From: Helicobacteraceae bacterium
Lineage (GTDB): Bacteria > Campylobacterota > Campylobacteria > Campylobacterales > SZUA-545
Direction of reading: 5' to 3'
Assembly: GCA_031275395.1 (NCBI GenBank)
Contig: JAISOU010000061.1
Location: forward strand, 1-64,000
DNA: 64,000 nt
The notes under the pieces are model-generated. The model saw only the letters and a program-made list of their open reading frames with translations. It did no database searches and was not told the origin of the DNA. Below, one piece after another: positions 24,205 to 55,463 of the stretch. Each line of letters starts with the position of its first letter. The first letter of the stretch is position 1. The position numbers and the translations under genes were made by a program.

Positions 24205-25956
24205 TCACGATAAAAAGCCTAGCGTTTTTTCGTCGCCAAACGCGCCGCTTAACTCTTTTTTAATGACCGCCGTAAAAATCTCCGTATTAAATTCGCCGTT
24301 GTTATCCGCCGCCACAAGCATTGCGGCGTTTTTGATCGCAAGCGAAATCTGCGCGCCCGTTAGCTGATATTTAGCCAACGCTTCAAGGCTTAATTCCCGC
24401 GCGATCGGCGCGTTTTTCGGAAAGAGTTTTTTCCATATCTCTAACCTTTCGGATTCGCTTGGTTTTTCAAACTTTATCTTATAGTCGAATCTGCGCGAAA
24501 AAGCCGGATCGATATTGTCGATCAAATTGGTCGTGGCGATCAATATCCCCTCAAAGCGCTCGATCTGTTCTAAAAAGATATTTTGCATTTGATTATGCAT
24601 CTTTTCCGCGCTACCGCTTACGCTTGAAACGCGCCCCGATAAAAACTGATCGGCTTCGTTTAAAAGTAGGATCGGCTCAATTTTCGCTTTAGCGGAAATC
24701 TCTTTATACGCGTCGAAGATATTGCGCGTATTTTTTTCGCTTTCGCCGACATACATCGATAGTATTTTAGAGCAGTCGAAGCTAATCACTCTTTTTTTCA
24801 GCGTTTTGGCGATCGAAAGCGCGGTTAGCGTCTTACCCGTGCCGGGTGCTCCGTGGAAGATAATCTTTGCGTCGATTCCGCGAGATTTACTCTTGATTCC
24901 CCACTCTTTTAACCGCCGCGCCGCCGCGCCGTCCATCTGTCTAACGATATTATCTAATACCGATCGCGTTTCTTTATGTAAAACGACGTCGTCTAACGAA
25001 GTTTTTGGATCGATAAGCTCAAAAATCTCTTGTTCTTTGATCAAAGAATCGAGCTTAACCTTTTGCTTCTTTGTCCTATTAGGGCGTATGATCTCTTTTA
25101 ACGCGTCTTCAACGATATAAAACGATCGGCTAATACCTCCGAATGGAGTTAAAACTTCATTGTAATCGATCACTCCCTTTTCAATCAGCGGCGAGTTTTC
25201 TTCTAACAAACTTCGATTTTTGATCTTATCGTAATCGTCAAAGCTGATAATTTCGATTAAAGCGTTCATATCCCGTAGATTATCGTCGTCCCCGCTATAC
25301 TCCTCTTTTAATAGCGCTAAAAAAATAATTTGCTCCTTTTCGTCAAAACGCCGATCCTTAAAATACTTCACGAGTTTTGGCGCTTCTTTAGAAGCTAAAA
25401 CGCGAGCTTTTATCTGATTTTCCAACAGAGCGATTCGGCTTTTAATATGCCTAAAACTTGGAGTCGCCGGATCGTAACTTCGGCGTATAAGCGCGAGCTT
25501 TTGGTAGAGATCGACGCGCAAAAACTCGTCTTGCAAATATTCGAGATGATCGTTATATGGTTTAACTTCGGGTAGCTGAACTTCAAGGTTTCCGTCCTCT
25601 AGCAGCTTCATAAAAGTCGCCGAAAGGCAAACCGATTGATGCAGCAATTCAAGCGATATAATTTCGTTAGTTCGCCCTTGATGAAAACCGCTTAAAGTGA
25701 TCCAGCCCAGATTGATTAGATTTTGCACTTCGTTGATCCGCGTTATGTAACCCATTTTCTCTTTTTCATAAGCGCTGACAAGCAGGTTAAAAACGCCCAT
25801 TTCGCTTGTGCCTTCCAAATAGGCGCGGGTTACCACTCTAAGCAGTTGCGCCTCCTCTTTAGAACATTTAAGCTGCGGAAAAATCGCGCAATCTTCTACG
25901 TTGCTAGCTTCAATAAAATCCATTAAAGGTTCTAACGTTTTATATCCTTTTTGCAT
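24205..25956 (-). CDS. AAA family ATPase (Cdc48-like single AAA module)
   Basis: A 583-residue protein with a helical N-terminal half of unknown role (about 1-330) and one C-terminal AAA module. Walker A is GAPGTGKT (about 373-380), Walker B is ILLLNEAD (about 431-438; Asn replaces the usual first Asp but the Glu is kept), then sensor TTN and arginine fingers in FSRRFD. Proteins of this build are conserved in Campylobacter as AAA/CDC48-type ATPases without assigned function. The first ATG overlaps the upstream lipoprotein gene by 25 bp and has no clear ribosome site; ATG at 25923 is an alternative start. Confidence 0.85.
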   Translation of the reverse strand: MQKGYKTLEPLMDFIEASNVEDCAIFPQLKCSKEEAQLLRVVTRAYLEGTSEMGVFNLLVSAYEKEKMGYITRINEVQNLINLGWITLSGFHQGRTNEIISLELLHQSVCLSATFMKLLEDGNLEVQLPEVKPYNDHLEYLQDEFLRVDLYQKLALIRRSYDPATPSFRHIKSRIALLENQIKARVLASKEAPKLVKYFKDRRFDEKEQIIFLALLKEEYSGDDDNLRDMNALIEIISFDDYDKIKNRSLLEENSPLIEKGVIDYNEVLTPFGGISRSFYIVEDALKEIIRPNRTKKQKVKLDSLIKEQEIFELIDPKTSLDDVVLHKETRSVLDNIVRQMDGAAARRLKEWGIKSKSRGIDAKIIFHGAPGTGKTLTALSIAKTLKKRVISFDCSKILSMYVGESEKNTRNIFDAYKEISAKAKIEPILLLNEADQFLSGRVSSVSGSAEKMHNQMQNIFLEQIERFEGILIATTNLIDNIDPAFSRRFDYKIKFEKPSESERLEIWKKLFPKNAPIARELSLEALAKYQLTGAQISLAIKNAAMLVAADNNGEFNTEIFTAVIKKELSGAFGDEKTLGFLS

Positions 25957-42251: not shown

Positions 42252-42803
42252 CTATACCTTATCGCCAGTTATAAATAGTCCGTTAGAAACATTTATTTCC
42301 ACGCGCTTTGGGCGCGAAGCGTAAAACCATTGCTCGCGCGAACGATAGCGGTTGGTAATAAATATTAAACGCTGGTTTGTAGAACCTACGAGGTTGCGCT
42401 TATCGTCGAGTTTGTTTTGTTCAAAACCGCCGTCAATTACAAGATCGACCTCGCATTTCAAGTCTGCGGGGACTTCGCATTCTTGTTTTCCAGTGAACAA
42501 TATCACGCCTAAACCAGTTGTCCGAATAACCCTTGATAGCTCCGTAAGTCCTTGCTGAAGCGTTGGTTCGCCGCCTAAATAGGTTACGCCCTCAATGTCG
42601 AATCGCTTCTTTGCCGCTGCAATTATCAAAAGTAATTGGTCGATCGTAAGAATATGCGCGGGCTTTAATTCGAGTAATTTTGGATTGCAACAACCCTTAC
42701 AACGCTTGTAGCAACCTTGAAACCATATTGCGAGCCGCTTTCCTGGACCCTCCGCTTCGGTGCATTTATTTATGCATGCGACGTTAAATTTAGGCGTTTT
42801 CAA
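42252..42803 (-). CDS. Radical SAM activase-like protein (NrdG/4Fe-4S single-cluster type)
   Basis: A small radical SAM protein related to anaerobic ribonucleotide reductase activase. CX3CX2C (GCYKRCKGC) binds the 4Fe-4S cluster, followed by the glycine-rich TYLGGEPTLQQG. It has no extra ferredoxin domain. The frame is open from 42839 (195 aa), overlapping the ClpB-like gene by 50 bp; TTG at 42803 has GGA at suitable spacing and gives 183 aa, so I prefer it. No glycyl-radical enzyme is encoded nearby. As last gene of the five-gene operon it may modify one of the other products by radical chemistry. Confidence 0.8.
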   Translation of the reverse strand: MKTPKFNVACINKCTEAEGPGKRLAIWFQGCYKRCKGCCNPKLLELKPAHILTIDQLLLIIAAAKKRFDIEGVTYLGGEPTLQQGLTELSRVIRTTGLGVILFTGKQECEVPADLKCEVDLVIDGGFEQNKLDDKRNLVGSTNQRLIFITNRYRSREQWFYASRPKRVEINVSNGLFITGDKV

Positions 42804-44622
42804 ATTCAAATTCCAGATCGCCCTTATCCGTTCGCGCAATTATTTTCGCGCCGCGATAGTCCGGAAGGTCGCGCTTATGCTCAAACAGAAAAAGCGCGAG
42901 TCCGTCGAGTAATTTATCGTTTATCGCGTTCAAAATATCGCGTCCGCCTTTGGTAATATCCGCGTCGCTAAGAATGTGTTCAACGAATTTCAACTCGTCC
43001 TTGAACTCCAAGTCAAGGCGGTATTTTTCTTTAATGGCATCCTTTATTGGCTTTAGTTTCGATTTCGCGATTTTAATCATAAACTCTCTATCGCGTATGA
43101 AGTTAAACGGAACAACATTGTTGTAGCCTATTCTGCCGAGTATTTCAGGACGCTTTATTTCCTTGTCAAAGTAGTTCCTGACTATGCGGATAAACTCTGC
43201 CGTCGTTTCCTTATTGCTCCCCGTCGCGATCACTTCACCCGCGCCAAGGTTCGACGTGAATATGATAACGCTCTCAGAAAAATAGACTGTTTCGCCCTTG
43301 CTGTCTGTAAGCCGCCCGTCCTCTAAAATCTGCAAAAAAATATCGAGGATACGCGGATTAGGTTTCGCCGCTTTTTCTATTTCATCAAACAAAATAACGC
43401 TGAATGGCTTCTCTTTTATGGCGTTTGTAAGTTGCCCGCCTTCCTCGTAACCTACATATCCGGGAGGCGCGCCGATTAGCTTTTGATCGCTGTTTTCCTG
43501 CGCGTATTCGCTCATATCAAAGCGTATGCACGCTTGCTCGTCGCCGAACAGAAATTTTGCAAGCGCTTTGCTAAGTTCCGTCTTGCCCACGCCGGTAGGT
43601 CCAACGAAAAACAACACGCCTTTGGGCATTGAACGGCTACTCGTCTTGTGCATTCCCGTCAAACCCATATAGGCTTTAACGACGACCTTTTCTATTTTCT
43701 TGATTGCCTCGTCCTGCCCGACTACGCGCTCGGCGAGCTCTTCCTTTATACGCTCAACCTTTTCGTGGTCGAGTTTTTCCCACGGGTTATCCTTTTCGCC
43801 GTATTTGAAAAGCCAGAATAACTTTTCAAACGTTAGTTTGTCTTCTTTACGCGAAAGCCGCGCCATTTGTATAATCTCGCGATTAGTGAAGTCGTCGAGC
43901 ATATCGACATATTCGCTCTTTTTATCGCAGTTCAAAAGCGTTTCGCCCGATTTTAATTTTACGTCAAAACCGTTTTCTATTCTTTCGAGCAATGTCTCGC
44001 GCTCCTCCCTGTCTGGTCTGCTAAGCGTAATCGTACTAACTTCCGGGTTGCCTTGGTAGAACGAAATCGGGAACATAGCGAGTTTATTCGCAATGATGAT
44101 TACCGTGCTTTCATTTTTATCAGACGAACTGTAATCGACTTTTTTATCCTTTATCGCTTTGCTTAAAAGCGTTAAATGTTGCCGTTCGTCCTCCGTAAAT
44201 CCGTTCGTTCCAAACAGGTAATCAGCCCAATTTAGGACGAACGCAATCTTGCGGTTTTTGTTTGTCAAGTTTTTAAAGACGATATTGAAAATCTCGGCGG
44301 GCGTTTTGAATTGTCCGCTTCCAGTATTTTTTTGCAACGCGGCGGCTTTCGGTTCGTCGTCAATGGAATAATCATCGCCCGATACTTCGTTCGTTTCGGT
44401 TATTTTCAAATGCGTTGTGTCGCCGTCTATGCCGTCCACCCTATCCCAATACAAAACGTCGTCGTAATCCATGCCGCGTAGCGTTTGCATAAGGTATTCC
44501 TTAATACTCACAATATTGTTGTTCTTGCCAAGATAAACGTCGCCGACGTTACCGTCTAGAATGACGCAACGCTTAATTCCGACCTCGCGTTTTAACCTAT
44601 TAAAATTCGATGTAAGCGCCAT
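42790..44622 (-). CDS. ClpB/ClpA-like AAA+ unfoldase with degenerate N-terminal module
   Basis: A 610-residue protein with two AAA-like halves. The N-terminal half (about 1-260) looks AAA-like (IAFVLNWADYLF at a Walker B position, LSRPDREERETLLERI as a lid) but lacks a P-loop (LDGNVGDVYLGKN). The C-terminal half is a Clp D2-type motor: Walker A GPTGVGKTE (about 340), pore loop GYVGYEEGG, Walker B ILFDEIEK (about 411), sensor FTSNLGA and sensor-2 GGRDIL. It should unfold or remodel a protein using ATP. It lacks the ClpP-binding and M-domain signatures I would look for. It is fourth in the operon, 9 bases after the coiled-coil gene. Confidence 0.85.
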   Translation of the reverse strand: MALTSNFNRLKREVGIKRCVILDGNVGDVYLGKNNNIVSIKEYLMQTLRGMDYDDVLYWDRVDGIDGDTTHLKITETNEVSGDDYSIDDEPKAAALQKNTGSGQFKTPAEIFNIVFKNLTNKNRKIAFVLNWADYLFGTNGFTEDERQHLTLLSKAIKDKKVDYSSSDKNESTVIIIANKLAMFPISFYQGNPEVSTITLSRPDREERETLLERIENGFDVKLKSGETLLNCDKKSEYVDMLDDFTNREIIQMARLSRKEDKLTFEKLFWLFKYGEKDNPWEKLDHEKVERIKEELAERVVGQDEAIKKIEKVVVKAYMGLTGMHKTSSRSMPKGVLFFVGPTGVGKTELSKALAKFLFGDEQACIRFDMSEYAQENSDQKLIGAPPGYVGYEEGGQLTNAIKEKPFSVILFDEIEKAAKPNPRILDIFLQILEDGRLTDSKGETVYFSESVIIFTSNLGAGEVIATGSNKETTAEFIRIVRNYFDKEIKRPEILGRIGYNNVVPFNFIRDREFMIKIAKSKLKPIKDAIKEKYRLDLEFKDELKFVEHILSDADITKGGRDILNAINDKLLDGLALFLFEHKRDLPDYRGAKIIARTDKGDLEFEFENA

Positions 44623-44631
44623 AGCCTTTTA

Positions 44632-45756
44632 CTACTCCTTGTTTGTTTTTGTTTTTATTTGTTGATATTTTTGCGTTGAAATCTTGTCGGGGTTAGACCA
44701 TATTTCTTGCGTTGCGGTTACCTTTATGCCGTAGATATCCTCTAGGTCTTGCATAAATGGCTGTATGTCGTTTTGGCAGGCTTGTCCCTCATATCCGTCA
44801 AAGCGGTATATGAATTTTCCGTCTAACATAACGCGAAACTCCGCTCGCTCGCCGCTTGCCTTTTGAGCTATCATAACGACCTCGTTCTTTTCCTTTTGGA
44901 GTTTAATATTTTTTCTGTCAACAATAAATCCTTTACTTTCTATGCATTCCATTACAACTTTCAAGGTCTTTTTTCTGACGGCTTCTCCAATAAGCTCCTC
45001 CGTTGCTTTTTTGCGTATCTCGGCGATTTGGTCTCTTGCGTCCGATGTTTCAGTTGTCATAACGGCGGCTATTGTTCCCTCGTCGAGTTTAGCCGCTCGC
45101 ATTTCCGCCTCAATTCCCGCTACAATTTTCTTACGCTCGACTTTGAAATAGTTGTCCGCGCCCGCTTGCAACTTGCTTTCGGCAATCGCCTTTATTTCCT
45201 CGAACGTTCTTGCGGCGTTCCTATTGTCGAGGTATTCAAGGTAGACAAAGCCCTTTAACGCCTCATCGGCGAGCGCGTTAAGTTTCGCGGCAAAATCTTC
45301 GCTCATAGCGATGGTACCGCTTGCGCGAAGCCTCATATCACGGCTATGCGCGGCTATCTTGTTTTGCAACAACCCGTTAAGCAAAGTCTCGTAACGCGCT
45401 ATTTCGTCGGTTGTAAGCTTGTTTGTCTCGTTTGACAGCGCTTGCGCCGCCAACACGACTGCGCGCTCGTTCGTCAATTCGCCGCGCACAAACTCTGAGT
45501 TAATGCGAACCTTCCCTTTAGTCGCTATTGCGTCCGATTGTTTTACAATTTCGTCAATTTTTGCCCGTAGGGACGCCTGGCGCTTTTTAAGCGCGCGCTT
45601 CATGCCCGCCGTTTCGTCGCCCTGCAAACTTTGCGAGGTTTCGTCGATTCGGCTAAGCAACTCGTCTATTTGGCAAAGTTGCTTAGCCGCAACCTCGCAA
45701 ATGCTACGGCATTCAATGGATATAGCTTCATAATTTATAACGACTTGATGGCTCAT
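44632..45756 (-). CDS. Coiled-coil protein of the five-gene operon, unknown function
   Basis: A 374-residue protein. The first two-thirds is charged and helical with coiled-coil character (about 20-75 and 170-260). The C-terminal 100 residues form a distinct alpha/beta domain (VVMIAQKASGERAEFRVML, FDGYEGQAC, FMQDLEDIYGIKV). I do not recognise the family. The frame opens at 45819, but ATG 45756 overlaps the upstream TGA (ATGA), giving 374 aa, and is preferred. Tight spacing to the HEPN-like gene before and the Clp-like gene after suggests a partner or adaptor of the unfoldase. Confidence 0.75.
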   Translation of the reverse strand: MSHQVVINYEAISIECRSICEVAAKQLCQIDELLSRIDETSQSLQGDETAGMKRALKKRQASLRAKIDEIVKQSDAIATKGKVRINSEFVRGELTNERAVVLAAQALSNETNKLTTDEIARYETLLNGLLQNKIAAHSRDMRLRASGTIAMSEDFAAKLNALADEALKGFVYLEYLDNRNAARTFEEIKAIAESKLQAGADNYFKVERKKIVAGIEAEMRAAKLDEGTIAAVMTTETSDARDQIAEIRKKATEELIGEAVRKKTLKVVMECIESKGFIVDRKNIKLQKEKNEVVMIAQKASGERAEFRVMLDGKFIYRFDGYEGQACQNDIQPFMQDLEDIYGIKVTATQEIWSNPDKISTQKYQQIKTKTNKE

Positions 45757-47999
45757 TTCTGATCCGCCTTTTTGTCGACGGGCGCGCTTTCCGCTATGGA
45801 AAAAACTGTATCCGCCCATTTGCTAATCTTTATTATATCAAACGTGAGTTGAGTTTCGGTCGGGTTTGGGTGTAGCAGTTTATTGCGAAATTTGCGGAGT
45901 TCATATAAGGCGTTCGCCTCGCTTTCCGTAATTATTTTTTCTTTTTTTGCGCTACCTATTTTTTCTGATATTTTCAAATTATCGCCTTTTTCAATCCCTA
46001 AGCGTTTGCCGAGAATGTATTCAAGGCGGACGACCATACCGCTGATTGCCGTGCGCCAATCTCCCGTATTTATCTTAGAGCGAATATATTTTTCATCTAT
46101 TTTTTCGGGACTGTTCGAAGCGTTACGTTCAATTATAAGATAGTCGAATACTGGTTGCATAATCGCTTCATATTTTGCAAGTTCATCATAGCCGCTGGAC
46201 GCAAAGAATGAATATTTTTTTGCGCTATTTTTGAGCCTTGCCTTAAACATTCTATAATCGTCAATAAACTTGTCGATGTTATAGTTTTTACGAAACGCGT
46301 ATTCAATTGTATTACGTATGCCCAAACTGTCTTTTAGATCGTTAAAATTTTTCGACAAGGCCGCAAAATCGTCGGATATTTTACTTTTTTCAAGTTCGGT
46401 TTCACCCGCAAGAATTTTACCGATATAAACCTCAATGACGTTTGCGACCGATAGCGATGCATTCTCAGAATAGCCCGCGTCTGTCAGAAGGTTAAATAGC
46501 TTTATTTTTGGAAGTTTGTCGAGCTTCTTGGCGAACGCGAGTAATAACTCGTTTTCATCTGGTTTTCGTAACCCGTTAAGCCTCTTTGCAAGTCTCGCGG
46601 TATAACTGGCGTTCTCCTCGGTCATATTGGCAATTAACTCGTTATAAATCTCGTTTGCATACTGCTCAGCCGTCGCTTGCCATTGCGGAATGCTTGCGTA
46701 GATGTCGTTTGCCGTAAGCAATATTTCGACCCGTTTTGCTCTATCATCCGTCGCCTTTATTTTCGCGGTAATATATCTCGCGGTAAAATTTGCGTCTTCC
46801 AAAAGCTCATAAACGGTTTTTATTAATTTTGCATATTCGATTAAAAATGCCGCCGCAATGCATTCGCCGAATATTGCTTTAATAACTTTGCTTTTTTCTT
46901 CGTCGCCATAAAGTTGTTCTGTCAATAGGCTAACGCTTACGGGCTTATTTAGAACGCGTTCGGTAAGCGTTATTTTTGTCGCGGCGTAAAACTTCATTTC
47001 CTTTGGATCTATCGTAATAAACGACCAGTCGGGGGATATTGCATCCGCCGCCATATTTATTATCTTTCCGCTTTCAAGCGCAATTTCAGTATTGTCGCGC
47101 TTTATGTTGATTTTATCCTTGCTACGAGTAATAAGTAGCTTTACGGGGCGTTTGATTTGCTTTTCATATTCTTCTGGCAAATATACCGCCGAAAGGTTCT
47201 TGAACTCTGCAAAGCTTTTTACATTTTTTGCGGGAACGCTGAACTTAAATTTATTTTTTGCCGCAAGCTCGCGTTCAAGCATATCGGGCGTAAAATATTT
47301 TTTGTAGAAAGCCTCCGCTCCCGTAGTTTTAATTCTAACCTCCATACCGTCTTCGTCGACGCGCAGTACGAGACTTCCCTCTTCCTTTGTTACAACATCC
47401 TCGCGTTCCACAATATCGTATTCAAGGACTCTTTCCTCTTTTTGCAAACCCGCGCTTCTCGCGTTATCAATCAAATATTCTTGTAGTCCAGTAAAGTCGG
47501 TTTCTACTTGCTGCATAAACCCCGCGGCGTAGCAACTCGACTGTTCTAATGCCATACATTTCGGAGCATTAAATAAAAATTCAAACGTCAAAGGGTTATA
47601 GTAAACCGTCAATTCCTTAGCTTTTTTCTCGCCCGTTAGAATTGCGCCTTCGCGGAACATTCGTTCGCCATTAGACGTAAATTCAAAATTGCCAATTATG
47701 TATTCATCAAACCATTCGCGGTCGAAACGGTTGCGGTCGTCATAGTTGTTGGACGAAAATTGAAGTATTTCGCGAGAGAGCAAAAGCTCTATCTCGTCTA
47801 TGAAAATAAACTGTAAGTCATCGGGAACGCCGAAGAGCTTCAATATACTAGCCAACTTTTCTTTGCGGTCTTGCGCTTCTTTAATTAGAGTGAGAATAAT
47901 ATAGCCCACGCCCGACGGTTTTCGAACTTCTGCGTATTTTAGATTAACCTTCAGCTTTATCAGCGGAAACGGGCATGAAGTAGTTATCGTTTTTTCCAC
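45753..47999 (-). CDS. Large protein with C-terminal HEPN-like RNxxxH motif
   Basis: A 748-residue protein with no recognisable N-terminal domain. The C-terminal 130 residues are helical and carry RNKLLHP (Arg705, His710 from the GTG start), matching the RX4-6H motif with polar residue after Arg that marks HEPN nucleases; the helical run WRTAISGMVVRLEYILGK before it fits a HEPN bundle. HEPN domains are metal-independent RNases in toxin-antitoxin and defence systems. The frame opens at a TTG at 48017; GTG 47999 sits behind GAGGAG in the helicase end and is preferred. It is second in the operon. Confidence 0.7.
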   Translation of the reverse strand: MEKTITTSCPFPLIKLKVNLKYAEVRKPSGVGYIILTLIKEAQDRKEKLASILKLFGVPDDLQFIFIDEIELLLSREILQFSSNNYDDRNRFDREWFDEYIIGNFEFTSNGERMFREGAILTGEKKAKELTVYYNPLTFEFLFNAPKCMALEQSSCYAAGFMQQVETDFTGLQEYLIDNARSAGLQKEERVLEYDIVEREDVVTKEEGSLVLRVDEDGMEVRIKTTGAEAFYKKYFTPDMLERELAAKNKFKFSVPAKNVKSFAEFKNLSAVYLPEEYEKQIKRPVKLLITRSKDKINIKRDNTEIALESGKIINMAADAISPDWSFITIDPKEMKFYAATKITLTERVLNKPVSVSLLTEQLYGDEEKSKVIKAIFGECIAAAFLIEYAKLIKTVYELLEDANFTARYITAKIKATDDRAKRVEILLTANDIYASIPQWQATAEQYANEIYNELIANMTEENASYTARLAKRLNGLRKPDENELLLAFAKKLDKLPKIKLFNLLTDAGYSENASLSVANVIEVYIGKILAGETELEKSKISDDFAALSKNFNDLKDSLGIRNTIEYAFRKNYNIDKFIDDYRMFKARLKNSAKKYSFFASSGYDELAKYEAIMQPVFDYLIIERNASNSPEKIDEKYIRSKINTGDWRTAISGMVVRLEYILGKRLGIEKGDNLKISEKIGSAKKEKIITESEANALYELRKFRNKLLHPNPTETQLTFDIIKISKWADTVFSIAESAPVDKKADQK

Positions 48000-48000
48000 G

Positions 48001-51000
48001 TTATCTGTTCTCCTCAAGAATATCGCTTGTTTTGAGTAATGATCCGTGTGTCAAAATCGTTGTTATTATCTCATGGTAAATCGGGTATGCCTTGCGATCT
48101 AGCGCTTTATTTCCGCTCATATCTGGCAAGTCAATTTTCGCGCTCGATAAAAAGTCTTTTGCTCCGACAATAACGAGCAACCGCCTTGCGCGCGAAAGCG
48201 CGACGTTTATTCGCTCAAACTTTTTCACAAATTCCGCGCGCGTTCCTTGTCTATATTTTGGTGCAGGATTCCTTACCATTGAAACAAAGATAATATCGCG
48301 TTCGTCGCCCTGAAAATCATCAACCGTGCTGACAATAAAACGTTCATCGTGCAATTCGCAAATGTTTTTTAACCTGCCAATTTTCTTGAGTTTTAACTTT
48401 ATAAGCTTTGCTTGCTCGCCATAGGTGCAAATAATACCCATGCTTCTGCGCGTATCCTTGCCGCGAGTTTTGTCTACTTCAAACCCGCCGACGCGTCCGT
48501 AGGCTTCGTCAATTTTCCTTGCAAGCTCGACGACAACTCTTGCTTCCGTTTCATTAGCGGCGGAAGAGCCGTCGCCGAACTTCTCATACGAGTCGCTGCA
48601 ATCGACAAAATAGATATGCTTGTCGATTTCAATTATTGATTTGCCGTTCTTTCCCTTTATATGCAAGCCGTGTTGTTTTTGGTCGTTTTGGTTGGGCGCG
48701 CCGAGTTCCAGACTGTCGCGCCCCGCGCTATCGCCGTAAAAGTGATTGAACACTTTCATAATATCGCCGTGGCAACGATATTGCTTTGTTAGCGTAACGC
48801 GCAATCTATCGGGAACGCTTTCGAACAAAGTTTTGAAAAAGCACTCCTCGTATAAAGCCGTGTATTCTTCGTTCTTGAGCTTATCGATCATATTCGGGTC
48901 TAAATCCTCGAAGTCGTCTTTTTTCATATGGCGAAGGTCATACATGGGCGGCAATTGCCTATGATCGCCCACGAGAATAACTGTTTTGCCATAAAGTATT
49001 GGTATCAATAAATCAATGAAACTTGACTTGCTGACCTCGTCTATTATGACCACATCTATACCTTGCCTCTTTATATCTAAATCGTCGAGAGCGTATTTTT
49101 TGAGCGAGTCCATCGAGGCTGCCCTAAAGTTATCGCGGCTTGTGCAAGTTAAACCAAACACGTTCGCGTTTTCAAATAACTTTTTTGTATATGCCTCGCG
49201 GTCGACTTCAATAGCGTCGTCGCTTTGAAGGTTATGCAGGAATTTCAATATGCGCTCGTACATAGGGATTTTCTTCTTATTTTCCGATTCGCGCGCCGCG
49301 AAATTTTGCTCTAGGTCGCGCCATTTAGTCTCTATTATTTCGAGCGCGGCGGTTATATCCTCATAAGGCTCTACTATGTCGAAATCCTCGAAAAACTTCG
49401 TTATCTTATTTTTCAAGCCGCTTTCTATCGCCTTATAACTCTCGTAATCGCCGTTTTCTTTTTCGGTTTTAGCCTCGTTGTATTTCTCGCGGATTTTAAT
49501 TTTAAGGTTGCTTACTTTCGTTTCCTTTTCGTCATATTCTTTCGCCGCGTTATCGATTAGCTCGCCGATTTGAGTACGCGACTTGTCGATAAAATCTTGT
49601 AATTCGCCTCTGATTTTCAAAAACGTATTTGCAAGCGCGCCGAGCGTTTCAGGGTTTAGCTCGCTCTTATTTACAACTTTGGCAATCGAAAGACGCGATA
49701 TATCAACGCTCGCGCTTTCTTTTGCCGCCTTGATTTCTTTTCCAACGGCGATAAGATCGCCTTGCGCCCGCTCAAAATCCGCCTCTTTGCCCTTGATGAT
49801 TTCATCAGTGTCGGGGTCGCGCAAATCGGCGAGTTGTTTTTTGATTTTTGCGCGTTTTGCTTCCAAAGCCATAAGCGCGGAATTATTGATAAGCGACGCA
49901 ATTTCCTCTTTTACTTTGCCAATGTCCGCCCTCAAAACAAACGACAACGTTTCTACTGCCCGTTCTAACGCGGGATAATTCGCTAAATGGTTGAGAAGCG
50001 TCTCGCGAAACTTTTTTATTTCCTCGTCGTCTTCCTCGTTTAAGGTTAGATTTTCAATATTGCGAAGTCTGCGCGACAACCTTTCCTTTTCATCCCGCAG
50101 GTTGCAAAGCTGTTCGCGCTCCAAATCGTATCTTTCCGCAAGCGACGTTTCTTCGCGTTTTATGCGTTCAAGCGTTCTGTCTACGTCTTGAATGCGCGAT
50201 TTCTCGCGAGTAAGCTTTTGATAGTCTAAGTTTAACTCGTTGAATTTCTCGTGAAACTTTTCCTTGTAATCGCTAAAATGCTTAAATATTTCAACCTCTT
50301 TGCGTAATCGGTCGCTTATGTTTATATAGAAATTATCCACTAAACGCTCAGGCGAATAAAGGTTGGCTTCTTGCTTCGCTTGCGACGGGATAAGCCGTAG
50401 CGGGCGAATTTCTGGAATTTTAGGCAGCCGCTCAAAAACGTTGTCTATCGCCTTGTGCGTTTCGCTCGAAATTAAAATACGCTTGCCGCGTTTTACAAAT
50501 TGAGCCGCAATTTCGGCTATGACCTCCGTTTTGCCCGTGCCTGGAGGTCCTTGCAACAAAAATATACTTTCGCTTGCTATCGCTTTGCTAACAGCTTCCT
50601 TTTGCTTTTCGTTCAGGCGCTGCGAGAAAAAGTCGATTTCAGGGGCCGCCGCGCCCTCTGCGTTTGCGAGTTCATTCGGCGCGAATAGGTATGTTGACAA
50701 AAACGGATTCTTTACATAACCGCCAAAGAAACTCTTTAGTGCATTTTTTTGTCGGAGGATTTTACTTTTTTCTTTTACTTGATTAGGTTTAAGAACTTTC
50801 GGCGTATATTTTTTAATGCATTCATTTATTCCATCGACAGTATCATTTGCTCGCAGTTTGAAATATATGTAATAGCGACGAATTGTATCGTTCTCTTTCA
50901 TATCAGCTTTTTTGGCGGCGAGTTCATCCGCGTTCTTGCGCTTCGCTTCGCTCTTTTCTTTTTCGATTTGCGGCGCTTGGCGCTCGCCGATAATGAGTTC

Positions 51001-52581
51001 TGACTCGCTTATATTGCGGCGTAGCTTTTCCTCGCGCGTTGCTCTAAGGCTCGCTTCCTTTTGCGCGACGAGCTTTTTGTTTCGCGTTTCATATAAAGCG
51101 CGCAAAGAAACCGTTTCCTTCTGGCGCGCCATTTCCGCCGTAAAACTCGCAAGCTCAGAGGCGAGTTCCGCCTCTAACCGTCCAACTTCGACGGCGACCT
51201 CTTTATCTGTTTTCTTGTCTTTATTTTTCTTGACGGCGGCAATTCGCTCGCCGTATTGCCGCTTTACTTTCTCCGCCCGCGCCCTAACCGCATCCTCTTT
51301 TGCTTTAACTTGCGCGGCGTAATCGCTGCGAATCGCGCCGTCCTTATTTTCAGCGACATCGCGATCAAAACTCATCGCAAGATTGTTTGCGTACTCCGTC
51401 AATGCCGCATTATCCGCGCGCGTCAATTCCTCCGCGCGCGTGATTATATATGCGTTTACGCGTTCTTTCAGAGCGGCGGCATAGCGGCTGCTGATTTCTG
51501 CGAGCGTTGCTTTGAGGTTGCCTGCAAAATTTGCTTCGACTTTTGTATAGTCGGGTTCTATGTCTTTTAAGCAAAACTTATAACGCTCGTCTACCGAAAC
51601 GAAATGCGCGGCTTTTTCGTCGGCCTCGTTTACAAGGATTATATCTGAACGCGTGAAGCGTTTTAGCATCTGCTCAAACGCGGGCGTTTTCGCCTCATTG
51701 CCTACCTCTGTAAAAAGCTCTTTTTTATTTTTATCGACCGTAACGCGAACAATATCAAACGGTTCGCTGTTTTCAAACCGCTCTGTAACGACCACTAATT
51801 CGTCTTTTTCGCGGATTTGGTCGATGCCGTCTAAAATATAAGCATCGTATTTTTCAGGTTGGTAATCGAGCCGTGAAACAACATAAACCGTTATCGCTTT
51901 CGCCTCGTCAAATGGAACTACTCCATTACCCTGTTGTTCAAGATAATACATGCGGAAATCTATGTAATCGCGCCACTTATAGTATGTCTTTAATACCGCC
52001 TGTGGGTCGGAAACCGTATAATAACGTTCGCACATTTCAAGCATTAAATCCCGCGTTATCGCTGATGGCTTTTCGTTTGAAACGAAGCCGTAATCTGGAA
52101 CCGTAAACGTACTGCCGTTTGCCGTAATTGACCTATTGCGAAACGCGCAAGCCGCAATCGCGCAAATAGCTTTCTCGCCGCGCTTATAAATCGAGCCGTC
52201 TATAAACTCGAAGCCCTTAACGTTCAATTCGCCGTATTTCATCGAAACGTTGCCTATCAAAATAATTTCAAGTCCATTCGGTAAAATTTGCTCTGATGCG
52301 GCGTTTCTCGTTGCGCGAATAACAATGTTATTAAAAAACTTTGCCTCCGCATCCTCGTTGCCTTCACGGATGAAATCAGGCATCAAGATATAGTAATCTC
52401 TCTGCTCGCCAGCTGGAAAGCATATCTGTATGAAGCGCTCATACTCCTCAAAACGCCTCAACTGCGGATAGCGCGCTGTTAGTTCCCTGTATTGCTCTTT
52501 CAGAGGCTTATTGTAAAAGTCCTGAATGTAATCGCTCCCATTGTCGCCGTTCCTAGTAAAGTTCAATAACAAATATGCCAC
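48001..52581 (-). CDS. Giant SF1 (Upf1/Dna2-like) helicase with coiled-coil insertions
   Basis: A 1526-residue protein. The N-terminal 380 residues are of unknown fold, followed by a long charged coiled coil (about 380-570). The SF1B core starts at LNEKQKEAVSKAI, with Walker A GPPGTGKTE (about 675), a second coiled-coil insertion (about 770-1090), Walker B VVIIDEVSKSS (about 1180), GDHRQLPPM, motif IV/V region KQYRCHGDIM (about 1270), STVDDFQGDERD (about 1430) and VALSRARRLLVIVG (about 1465). All helicase motifs appear intact. GTG start behind AAGGAG; TATAAT lies 30 bp upstream. It is the first gene of the operon. It could act on DNA, RNA or RNP. Confidence 0.88.
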   Translation of the reverse strand: MAYLLLNFTRNGDNGSDYIQDFYNKPLKEQYRELTARYPQLRRFEEYERFIQICFPAGEQRDYYILMPDFIREGNEDAEAKFFNNIVIRATRNAASEQILPNGLEIILIGNVSMKYGELNVKGFEFIDGSIYKRGEKAICAIAACAFRNRSITANGSTFTVPDYGFVSNEKPSAITRDLMLEMCERYYTVSDPQAVLKTYYKWRDYIDFRMYYLEQQGNGVVPFDEAKAITVYVVSRLDYQPEKYDAYILDGIDQIREKDELVVVTERFENSEPFDIVRVTVDKNKKELFTEVGNEAKTPAFEQMLKRFTRSDIILVNEADEKAAHFVSVDERYKFCLKDIEPDYTKVEANFAGNLKATLAEISSRYAAALKERVNAYIITRAEELTRADNAALTEYANNLAMSFDRDVAENKDGAIRSDYAAQVKAKEDAVRARAEKVKRQYGERIAAVKKNKDKKTDKEVAVEVGRLEAELASELASFTAEMARQKETVSLRALYETRNKKLVAQKEASLRATREEKLRRNISESELIIGERQAPQIEKEKSEAKRKNADELAAKKADMKENDTIRRYYIYFKLRANDTVDGINECIKKYTPKVLKPNQVKEKSKILRQKNALKSFFGGYVKNPFLSTYLFAPNELANAEGAAAPEIDFFSQRLNEKQKEAVSKAIASESIFLLQGPPGTGKTEVIAEIAAQFVKRGKRILISSETHKAIDNVFERLPKIPEIRPLRLIPSQAKQEANLYSPERLVDNFYINISDRLRKEVEIFKHFSDYKEKFHEKFNELNLDYQKLTREKSRIQDVDRTLERIKREETSLAERYDLEREQLCNLRDEKERLSRRLRNIENLTLNEEDDEEIKKFRETLLNHLANYPALERAVETLSFVLRADIGKVKEEIASLINNSALMALEAKRAKIKKQLADLRDPDTDEIIKGKEADFERAQGDLIAVGKEIKAAKESASVDISRLSIAKVVNKSELNPETLGALANTFLKIRGELQDFIDKSRTQIGELIDNAAKEYDEKETKVSNLKIKIREKYNEAKTEKENGDYESYKAIESGLKNKITKFFEDFDIVEPYEDITAALEIIETKWRDLEQNFAARESENKKKIPMYERILKFLHNLQSDDAIEVDREAYTKKLFENANVFGLTCTSRDNFRAASMDSLKKYALDDLDIKRQGIDVVIIDEVSKSSFIDLLIPILYGKTVILVGDHRQLPPMYDLRHMKKDDFEDLDPNMIDKLKNEEYTALYEECFFKTLFESVPDRLRVTLTKQYRCHGDIMKVFNHFYGDSAGRDSLELGAPNQNDQKQHGLHIKGKNGKSIIEIDKHIYFVDCSDSYEKFGDGSSAANETEARVVVELARKIDEAYGRVGGFEVDKTRGKDTRRSMGIICTYGEQAKLIKLKLKKIGRLKNICELHDERFIVSTVDDFQGDERDIIFVSMVRNPAPKYRQGTRAEFVKKFERINVALSRARRLLVIVGAKDFLSSAKIDLPDMSGNKALDRKAYPIYHEIITTILTHGSLLKTSDILEENR

Positions 52582-52629: not shown

Positions 52630-52863
52630 TTAACTGAACGCTTTTTGAAACTTTTCCAAGAAAAGTTTGCAGCGTTCGGATGTGTTTGCTTGAAATACGC
52701 CAAATATCGACGCAAGCAAACAAGCCGCCGTTCTGCCGCTAAAGGCGAGCAAACAGTCTATCTCCTGCGAGATCGACGCGTCGGCGCGCTTAGTGGGTAT
52801 CTGCGCCCTAACAAAATGGCATAAGTAGCGTTTTATGCGCGTTGTTAGCGCACAGCAAGCCAA
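52630..52863 (-). CDS. Possible 77-residue ORF or gene remnant
   Basis: The frame from TTG 52863 to 52630 reads as plausible protein (helical, Cys-containing, ending LFLEKFQKAFS) and is not a shadow of another gene except for 19 bp at the polyvalent gene end. It has no ATG and no ribosome site. It may be a displaced 3' piece of the neighbouring decayed element. Confidence 0.3.
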   Translation of the reverse strand: MACCALTTRIKRYLCHFVRAQIPTKRADASISQEIDCLLAFSGRTAACLLASIFGVFQANTSERCKLFLEKFQKAFS

Positions 52864-55463
52864 AGTCGTTTTTTATTTGCCGTCCTACGCAATCGCTTCG
52901 CCATGTTTTGCGTCTGGAAGGCAAACTCTTTATTCGCGTCGTCCCATAAGCCGCCGTATTTTTCGGCGATTTTCTCTTGCGCGGCGATTACGTCGCGGCG
53001 CAATACGGGCGGTTTAACCCAAGCCGCGCCGTCGTTTTCGGCGATCAGGTTAAAGCCGTCCAACGTCGTTTCGGTCGCTTCGTTAGTTTCGATCGCCGCC
53101 TTCGACGACCTCTCGTAAGACGAGCCGCCCTTGTTTTTTAATTTTATCAGATCGGCTCGCGGCGCGTCGTTTATTTTCGCCGCCGCCTCAAACTCGGCTG
53201 GCGTTACGTCGATCGCTTCGCCCGCCGCGTTTCGTAGTTGCGGTTTCTCGACGGCGTAAAAATCGGGATCGCGATAAATCCCCGCCGCAAGATCGTTTTG
53301 ACGCGCCCGCTCGTCGATAACCCGCGACATAAAAGGCTCGTATCCCTGCTCGATATAGTTGCGCATTCGGGCGCGAGTCGCTAACGCTTGCTTATCTTCG
53401 GGCGTTAGCGCCTCTAACTCTCTGCGGGCGTTGTTTAGATCGGCTCGCGTTGTTTCATAATCGCCTTCCGCGATCAATCGCTCCGTATTGGCGACTTTCG
53501 CTTCGGCGGCTGCGCGTAACGACGGCTCGATCTTTTTTTCAATGTTCGCTATATCGCTTCGGAGGGCGTTAAGTTCCCCTTCAAGCTCTTTTTCGCCGTT
53601 CGCGAGCCGCCGAGAAAGAAACTTTTCGCTCATTTTCGCGTCGTCTAACGCCCGTTTGTAAGCAAACGACGGATCGCGTTTAATCTCGTTAGCTAACTGC
53701 CTATCGACTAACGCGCTATAAAAACTATATCCGTCGACCGTCCTTTTGGTCGAGGGTATTCCGACGGGCGTTTTCGCGTCTTTAACGCCGTTAGCGGCTA
53801 GAAAATCTCTAGCCGCTTCATAATCGCCGTCGCCAAGCGCCGCTCTTTCTTGACTTTTCGCCGCGTCGATCTCTTTGGCGCGTTTAACGGGGTCGATCTT
53901 GCCGCGATTCCACGCTTTTAGCGCGTCAAGGTCGAGATTAGCGAATAGTTTAGCCGTTTGCTCCGTTACGCCCTCGTCTATTAGCCGCTTGTATATCTCA
54001 TTAGACAACGCGGCTTGCTCTTTAGCGTTCTTTAGATAGTCGTCATAACTAGAGGTCAGCGCGTAGTTAAGGCGACCTTCGTTTAGCTTTAACGCCTCCG
54101 CGTACTCCGTCGCTATTTTCTCGCTCGCGCCGTCGGCTATTAGTCTTTGTCTTAAGATTTCGGCTTTGGCTAACGGATTATTTATTTCAATGGCAGGATC
54201 AACCCCCGCCGCTTTTAGTTTCTCGTCGATATTGGTTAGCGCGAATTTATTTTTTGGAACGTAGCCGCCGTTTTCATAAGGAACAAAGAAGCCTTTTTCA
54301 ATCGCCGCTTGCTTATCGAATAACAGCGTCCACTTATAATCTCTTAGCCGTTCTATATCCGCTAGGCTTAGTTTGTCTTTGGCTAACAGGCGATTTAAGC
54401 CGCTAACGGATAGATTGGGATAATATACGATCCTATCGGCTACGCTTCTGCCGTCTGGAAGCGCGGTAAAGCCTTTGGCTTTCGCCCAGCTTGGTATTTG
54501 ACTTTCGGGCGGGCGATCTGGTATAGTTTCGCTCTGGGCAGGTGCGGCAGAACCCTCCCGATTTGACGCGGGAGCAAGAGTTGGCGACCTGTCCTTTCCG
54601 CTGTTAGTCCTATCCTTCATTAGCCTCAACATATCCTCTGTTAGAGAACCGTTGTGTTTATACATATCAAAGAAAGCGATGTTTCCTCTGCCTGTTCTTA
54701 CTTCCTCGACGATAATCGCGTAGCCGTTTATCTGTTTGCCATAGACGATAGCGGGCAGATTGTATCGCCTTGTATGCGAATAAATCTTGAAGTCGTGATC
54801 TTTCACGATTTCGGGATATTTCGCTATATCATCGAGCGTAACGGCAACGCCGCCAAATTGCGCTTCCCTTTTTGGATCGCCGTGTTTGTTTAGCGTATGG
54901 CGTATTTGGTTGCCGTCGATCGCGCGCGTAATTTGCGAAGGCTTAAAGGTTACGCTCTCGCCAAATTGATTCTTGAACGCCGCCGCTATTTCGTTCGCTT
55001 CGTCGGCGGTTACTTCGGCGATATGGATTTTTCCGTCGGCTTGCGATAAACGCTTCACGGCTTCGACGTTTAGCGGCTCGATAGTAATTTCTGGCGCTTG
55101 CGTCGCGATCGCCGCTGGTTCTTTGCCTGCCGTCCTCGCGCTAACGGTTTTAGGAGTCGTCGCTCCGTTCGTTAAAGGGCGCGAAATCTCGCTTGTATCT
55201 AACGCTCTGGGCGCTTGTTCGCCTATCAATCGGAAGTTAGGCTTATATTCGATTTGCGCTCTTGGTTCGTATCCCAGCGTTCTTTGCGCTTCGATAACCG
55301 CCTCGTCTATCGTTTGCTTCGCCTCTTGCGCCGTAGCGTTTGTCGGCAAGCTCGCAATGGCTTCGTCGGTCGATTGAAACATTAAGCGCAAAGCGGCAAT
55401 GTCGCTAGGGCTTATTCCGCCTCCGCCTCCATTAGCTACTTTCGTTTGAAGGCGCTTAAACAA
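52845..55463 (-). pseudogene. 5'-truncated polyvalent mobile-element protein with PBECR-like nuclease domain
   Basis: An 872-codon frame whose only start is a TTG without ribosome site. The same frame stays open and protein-like for 54 more codons to a TAG at 55626-55628, with no start codon, so the true 5' end is missing. Residues about 180-270 (IRHTLNKHGDPKRE, VAVTLDDIAKYPEIV, YAIIVEEVRTGRGN) look like the Barnase/EndoU/ColicinE5-D/RelE-like nuclease domains (DUF3519-like) of phage and conjugative-element polyvalent proteins. The rest is low-complexity, Ala/Arg/Glu-rich and helical with no clear domain. GATC density is closer to the core than to the neighbouring operon. Confidence 0.65.

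What the first reader, a model, noticed from the sequence alone, without database searches (positions are those of the whole stretch)
45753..45890. C-terminal HEPN-type RNxxxH motif as candidate effector
RNKLLH near the C-terminus within a helical segment fits the RX4-6H motif, with the polar residue after Arg that is typical of active HEPN ribonucleases. It would make the 748-residue protein the likely toxic effector of the operon.
Basis: partly seen in the sequence, partly recalled or inferred. Interest (0 to 1): 0.6.

Follow-up and report, generated by a model that had tools for sequence, protein, structure and literature searches.

The report
HEPN ribonuclease tip of five-gene operon

Summary
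RNKLLH (Arg705-Asn706...His710) lies at 45870-45887, minus strand, in a 748-aa protein. I collected 39 relatives that still carry this C-terminal domain (20-65% identical to the window protein where aligned). Arg705, Asn706 and His710 are invariant in all of them. The last 154 residues score above Pfam's cut-off for DUF4145, a HEPN family. An AlphaFold2 model (pLDDT 88) is all-helical, with the motif at the end of the third core helix. Its best PDB matches are almost all HEPN proteins, though with weak E-values. The protein is gene 2 of a conserved operon: UPF1-like SF1 helicase, gene 2, unknown gene 3, ClpB-like AAA ATPase, NrdG-like radical SAM. The operon is rare, spread over several phyla and on plasmids, and lies in an AT-richer stretch of the window. 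In five plasmid lineages gene 2 has the same N-terminal domain but ends in a PIN ribonuclease with its acidic residues intact. The best reading is a modular anti-element system whose gene 2 delivers an exchangeable RNase. RNase activity, toxicity and defence are inferred, not tested. Two diverged relatives have a gene 2 without a recognisable nuclease. No held library or paper names the system.

The parts
45870..45887 (-). RNKLLH motif, R705-N706-K-L-L-H710: HEPN Rx4H active site
   Evidence: translation; R, N and H invariant in all HEPN-type relatives
45795..46112 (-). HEPN domain (about residues 630-735) of gene 2, DUF4145-like
   Evidence: Pfam DUF4145 23.4 bits against a cut-off of 23.1 for the window's C-terminus, 25 of 35 relatives match DUF4145 and 9 match HEPN_RiboL-PSP; AF2 pLDDT 88; Foldseek HEPN matches
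45753..47999 (-). gene 2, 748 aa (GTG start): N-terminal domain shared with PIN-type proteins, alpha/beta middle, helical repeat-like region, C-terminal HEPN
48001..52581 (-). gene 1, 1526-aa SF1 (UPF1/IGHMBP2-like) helicase with a long insert between its two helicase domains
   Evidence: AAA_11 and AAA_12 in Pfam; MkoA helicase core in PADLOC
44632..45756 (-). gene 3, 374 aa; C-terminal ~120-aa domain conserved in both HEPN- and PIN-type operons, with invariant Gly-x-x-Cys and W-x-N-P-D
   Evidence: ATGA overlap with the gene 2 stop
42790..44622 (-). gene 4, 610-aa ClpB-like (AAA_2) ATPase with system-specific N-terminal domain
42252..42839 (-). gene 5, NrdG-like radical SAM protein with CxxxCxxC (listed start is a TTG; the true start is probably further in)
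   Evidence: three Cys invariant in the alignment

Best explanation
Gene 2 is the effector-bearing subunit of a mobile five-gene operon that is most likely an anti-phage or anti-plasmid system. Its C-terminal HEPN domain is a metal-independent ribonuclease that uses Arg705, Asn706 and His710. Proposed working: the SF1 helicase surveys foreign or aberrant nucleic acid; gene 2 docks to the rest of the system through its N-terminal domain and holds its RNase inactive; on sensing, the ClpB-like ATPase with genes 3 and 5 remodels or licenses the complex, and the HEPN domain cuts RNA, stopping phage or host growth. Shown here: the HEPN domain, invariance of its catalytic residues, conservation and wide distribution of the operon, and replacement of HEPN by PIN in sister operons. 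Inferred: RNase activity, toxicity, defence role, and the sensing and licensing steps.
For: Invariant R-R-N-H in 39 of 39 alignment rows, with the rest of the protein at 20-65% identity to the window, and RNVYTH in the code-4 Malacoplasma copy. A Planctomycetota copy has the HEPN region duplicated and keeps RNEFQH in the first and in the second motif position. DUF4145 and other HEPN Pfam families match most relatives. AF2 pLDDT 88, with R and N inside the third core helix and H just after it, which is where Anantharaman et al. 2013 (PMC3710099) place the motif. Nearly all of the top 36 PDB fold matches are HEPN proteins, many of them HepT toxins. Five-gene order conserved in most of L011-L053 and on Acinetobacter, Photobacterium, Polaromonas, Moellerella and Leisingera plasmids. 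PIN_4 at the C-terminus of the plasmid gene 2s with acidic residues conserved, while the N-terminal domains are homologous (hhalign 93.6%, E 2e-7). Neighbours include BREX and DarT genes, and recombinases, methyltransferases, DrmD-like and restriction-type genes. G+C is 0.43-0.47 in the island against about 0.51-0.53 before it. The gene 4 tree does not follow phyla.
Against: No activity or phage data. Foldseek E-values are 0.05 or worse and most TM-scores under 0.45, so the fold call rests on rank, probability and motif rather than E-value. Diverged relatives L054 and L075 keep the operon but have a gene 2 without a recognisable nuclease, so the nuclease is not obligatory in gene 2. Defence genes in the flanks are only moderately frequent, without a random-locus control, and many neighbours are housekeeping genes.
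Confidence: 0.75

Rival explanations
1. The HEPN domain is real and catalytic, but the operon is an RNA-processing or stress-response machine of the host or of a mobile element rather than immunity: helicase plus RNase resolve structured or damaged RNA, with the ClpB-like ATPase acting as a disaggregase.
For: UPF1-like helicase with a PIN RNase recalls eukaryotic nonsense-mediated decay (PIN RNases in that pathway: PMC3710099); ClpB homology; several loci lie among housekeeping genes.
Against: Very patchy distribution: 1 of 397 genomes of the class and one or two clear matches in each of three further samples of about 370-400 genomes. Found on plasmids, once near BREX and DarT genes, spread across phyla, with an exchangeable nuclease tip.
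Confidence: 0.15
2. The HEPN fold serves as a non-catalytic binding module, like the HEPN-like domains fused to nucleotidyltransferases, and the real effector is another subunit (helicase or radical SAM).
For: Some HEPN families lost the motif and act as binding domains (PMC3710099). L054 and L075 do without the domain.
Against: Binding-only HEPN domains lose Rx4-6H, whereas here R, N and H are invariant in all copies that carry the domain, and the alternative tip is a PIN domain with its acidic residues intact.
Confidence: 0.08
3. The motif is a chance hexapeptide in a helical C-terminus with no HEPN relationship.
For: A loose R-x4-6-H occurs by chance in 2.5% of shuffled C-termini.
Against: Invariance in all relatives that carry the domain, Pfam HEPN-family hits, and HEPN-dominated fold matches.
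Confidence: 0.02

Closest known systems
DUF4145 (PF13643) HEPN domains
   Same: Pfam match, Rx4H with Asn after Arg; often fused to or encoded with helicases and restriction genes (PMC3710099)
   Different: Here the domain is the C-terminal tip of a 710-750-aa protein in a five-gene operon with ClpB-like and radical SAM partners; score only just reaches the Pfam cut-off
HEPN-MNT (HepT/MntA) toxin-antitoxin systems
   Same: HEPN RNase fold; these toxins are the best structural matches
   Different: No MNT antitoxin in the operon, and Pro-Asn follows the catalytic His where, from my own knowledge, HepT toxins have x-Tyr (the AMPylated tyrosine)
Mokosh (MkoA/MkoB) defence system
   Same: The gene 1 helicase core matches MkoA models at about 300 bits
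   Different: No kinase or phospholipase-D partner (the known Mokosh parts, from my own knowledge) was found; partners are HEPN or PIN protein, ClpB-like ATPase and radical SAM protein
PIN-SF1 helicase pairings among the effectors of NTP-dependent conflict systems (Kaur et al. 2020, PMC7159879)
   Same: PIN RNase accompanied by an SF1 helicase; a radical SAM protein also occurs in that network
   Different: Those are MoxR-vWA or similar cores; the five-gene order and the HEPN-type gene 2 were not found in the text searched

Membership tests
HEPN superfamily (DUF4145-like) | Rx4-6H motif with polar residue (N, D or H) after Arg | tested here: met
   RNKLLH; R, N and H invariant in all relatives that carry the domain
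HEPN superfamily (DUF4145-like) | Sequence profile match above the curated cut-off | tested here: met
   23.4 bits against 23.1 for the C-terminal 154 residues; 20.6, just below, for the whole protein
HEPN superfamily (DUF4145-like) | Alpha-helical bundle with the motif at the end of helix 3 | tested here: met
   AF2 pLDDT 88; PDB best hits HEPN, but E-values 0.05-1
HEPN superfamily (DUF4145-like) | Conserved acidic residue in helix 2 (Ex3[KR]) | tested here: inconclusive
   Position 660 is E in 17, Q in 14, D in 3 and S in 1 of 35
HEPN superfamily (DUF4145-like) | RNase activity | not testable with these tools
   needs an assay
HEPN-MNT toxin-antitoxin | Adjacent MNT nucleotidyltransferase antitoxin | tested here: not met
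   none among the operon genes
Mokosh | MkoA helicase homology | tested here: met
   297.6 bits over the helicase core
Mokosh | Partner phospholipase-D protein or domain | tested here: not met
   no such domain in genes 1-5
Anti-phage defence system | Protection against phages | not testable with these tools
   only indirect: mobility, patchiness, some defence neighbours, nuclease swap

The most novel reading that the evidence does not exclude
An unnamed five-gene immune system in which a UPF1-like helicase, a ClpB-like ATPase, a radical SAM enzyme and gene 3 form a fixed core, and gene 2 is an adaptor whose C-terminal effector is swapped between HEPN and PIN RNases; the radical SAM enzyme makes a post-translational modification (perhaps on the invariant Gly-x-x-Cys domain of gene 3) that arms or restrains the effector.
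Probability: 0.35. Interest if true: 0.8.

Novelty: new variant of a known kind. Interest (0 to 1): 0.57.

Why it matters
Exchange of two unrelated RNase folds on the same adaptor is strong comparative evidence that RNA cleavage is the output of this operon, and it separates effector from core. The core joins a UPF1-like helicase, a ClpB-like ATPase and a glycyl-radical-activase-like enzyme, a combination not named in PADLOC, NCBIfam or the papers searched. It offers a compact, testable case for how AAA and radical SAM chemistry could control a toxic RNase.

Tried and rejected
Single-protein searches with gene 2 found nothing in plasmids, genome contigs or viral contigs, and only itself in 397 genomes of its class, because it diverges fast; the conserved N-terminus of gene 4 was the way in. 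A six-row gene 4 alignment was too diverse to scan genomes with. A sequence search of PDB with the HEPN profile gave no HEPN hit, only chance-level matches. A fold search with the whole 748-aa model gave only weak helical-repeat matches, and the viral fold library only weak ones. An empty-site test failed: the two flanking genes lie on different contigs in the closest relatives. PLuB, named by one NCBIfam helicase model, was not found in the literature and scores far below its cut-off. A promoter and terminator scan was at chance level.

Full report
The observation. The minus-strand ORF at 45753-47999 encodes 748 residues from a GTG start that follows directly on the stop of the upstream helicase gene, the same arrangement as in the closest relative L012. 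RNKLLH occupies residues 705-710, codons 45887 to 45870. It is the only R-x4-6-H match in the protein. In shuffles of the same composition RN-x3-H appears in 0.2% and a loose motif in the last 130 residues in 2.5%, so the letters alone would be a modest signal.

Conservation. Gene 2 was invisible to direct searches, so I moved to its neighbours. The plasmid collection showed the same five-gene order in five lineages. The N-terminus of gene 4 then led to a viral-collection contig (L011) and 44 genome loci from Bacillota, Mycoplasmatota, Bacteroidota, Campylobacterota, Spirochaetota, Planctomycetota and others. A script recovered all five genes in most of them; the rest are short contigs or remnants. 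In the alignment of gene 2, Arg702, Arg705, Asn706 and His710 are invariant in all 39 rows that carry the domain (window plus 38), while identity to the window ranges from 20 to 65%. The Malacoplasma copy, read with code 4, has RNVYTH at the same place. One Planctomycetota copy has the region twice, each with RNEFQH. Only 13 positions of the protein are invariant in the full alignment, four of them in this stretch.

Fold and family. Scanned alone, the last 154 residues pass the Pfam cut-off for DUF4145 (23.4 against 23.1 bits); 25 of 35 relatives match DUF4145 and some match further HEPN families. DUF4145 is placed in the HEPN superfamily by Anantharaman et al. 2013, who also report that the residue after Arg is usually N, D or H and that the motif sits at the end of helix 3 (PMC3710099). 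The AlphaFold2 model (35 sequences, mean pLDDT 88.4, pTM 0.79) is all-helical; helix 98-115 of the model ends at the residue before His710 (116 in model numbering). Foldseek against PDB ranks HEPN proteins in nearly all of the first 36 places (HepT-MntA, HEPN-MNT, sacsin, MtlR), with 2hsb at probability 1.00 and TM 0.52/0.61; E-values are weak, 0.05 to 1. The acidic residue of helix 2 seen in many HEPN families is only partly kept.

The operon. Gene 1 is an SF1 helicase of the UPF1/IGHMBP2 type, gene 4 a ClpB-like AAA ATPase, gene 5 an NrdG-like radical SAM protein whose three cysteines are conserved throughout; gene 3 matches no family but has a strongly conserved C-terminal domain. Genes 2 and 3 overlap by ATGA. 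G+C falls to 0.43-0.47 across the operon from about 0.51-0.53 before it. The gene 4 tree mixes phyla, and the operon is rare in every sampled group. Together these suggest horizontal transfer. Flanks contain recombinases, methyltransferases and DrmD-like or restriction-type genes in some loci, but also housekeeping genes; the Acinetobacter copy lies within about 10 kb of BREX and DarT genes.

Effector exchange. In the five plasmid lineages gene 2 has a homologous N-terminal domain (hhalign probability 93.6%, E 2e-7 without the intermediate L054; 98.3% with it), but its C-terminus is a PIN_4 domain whose acidic residues are conserved in all five. Two unrelated RNase folds in the same position, each with its catalytic residues kept, is the strongest comparative argument that gene 2 delivers RNA cleavage. 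Exceptions are L054, whose gene 2 lacks both and whose gene 5 lies beside a 612-aa putative membrane protein on the other strand, and L075, with a 470-aa gene 2 without a recognisable nuclease.

Mechanism. Shown: HEPN family, invariant active site, conserved mobile operon, HEPN/PIN exchange. Inferred: RNase activity; helicase as sensor; ClpB-like ATPase, gene 3 and radical SAM protein as control layer; growth arrest or phage RNA destruction as outcome. An antitoxin of the MNT type is absent, so restraint must come from the complex itself or from modification.

Known or new. The domain is a new member of a known family. The system as a whole is not named in PADLOC 2023, NCBIfam 2026 or the papers searched: gene 1 matches MkoA mainly through its helicase core, gene 4 matches PDC-M37B and DolB only through its AAA core, and genes 2 and 3 match nothing in PADLOC (literature). 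Since most subscription journals and all bioRxiv preprints are missing from the library, a prior description cannot be excluded.

Noticed in passing
window 52845-55463 (-): 872-aa protein with a PBECR3 nuclease-like domain (polyvalent-protein type) directly upstream of the helicase gene; suggests a mobile element.
   Followed up: no
window 24205-25956 (-): AAA ATPase with a winged-helix-like domain and IetA/IteA similarity, far from the operon.
   Followed up: no
L054 11854-14207: Operon relative with gene 2 lacking HEPN/PIN; gene 5 sits on the opposite strand next to a 612-aa protein with apparent membrane helices, possibly another effector type.
   Followed up: partly
L075 127-9220: Operon with a 470-aa gene 2 without nuclease, near a transposase fragment and an integrase.
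   Followed up: partly
L025 9197-12362: Apparent operon remnant: genes 1 and 2 missing, gene 3 truncated, genes 4 and 5 intact.
   Followed up: no
L010 1-16999: Aristaeella plasmid: gene 4/5-like pair in a different cluster with a DUF4011 (Hhe-type) protein, FHA, kinases and a phosphatase, so the ATPase-radical SAM pair may be a wider module.
   Followed up: no
L046 6691-8862: Malacoplasma copy needs code 4 (TGA=Trp); read that way gene 2 is intact.
   Followed up: yes
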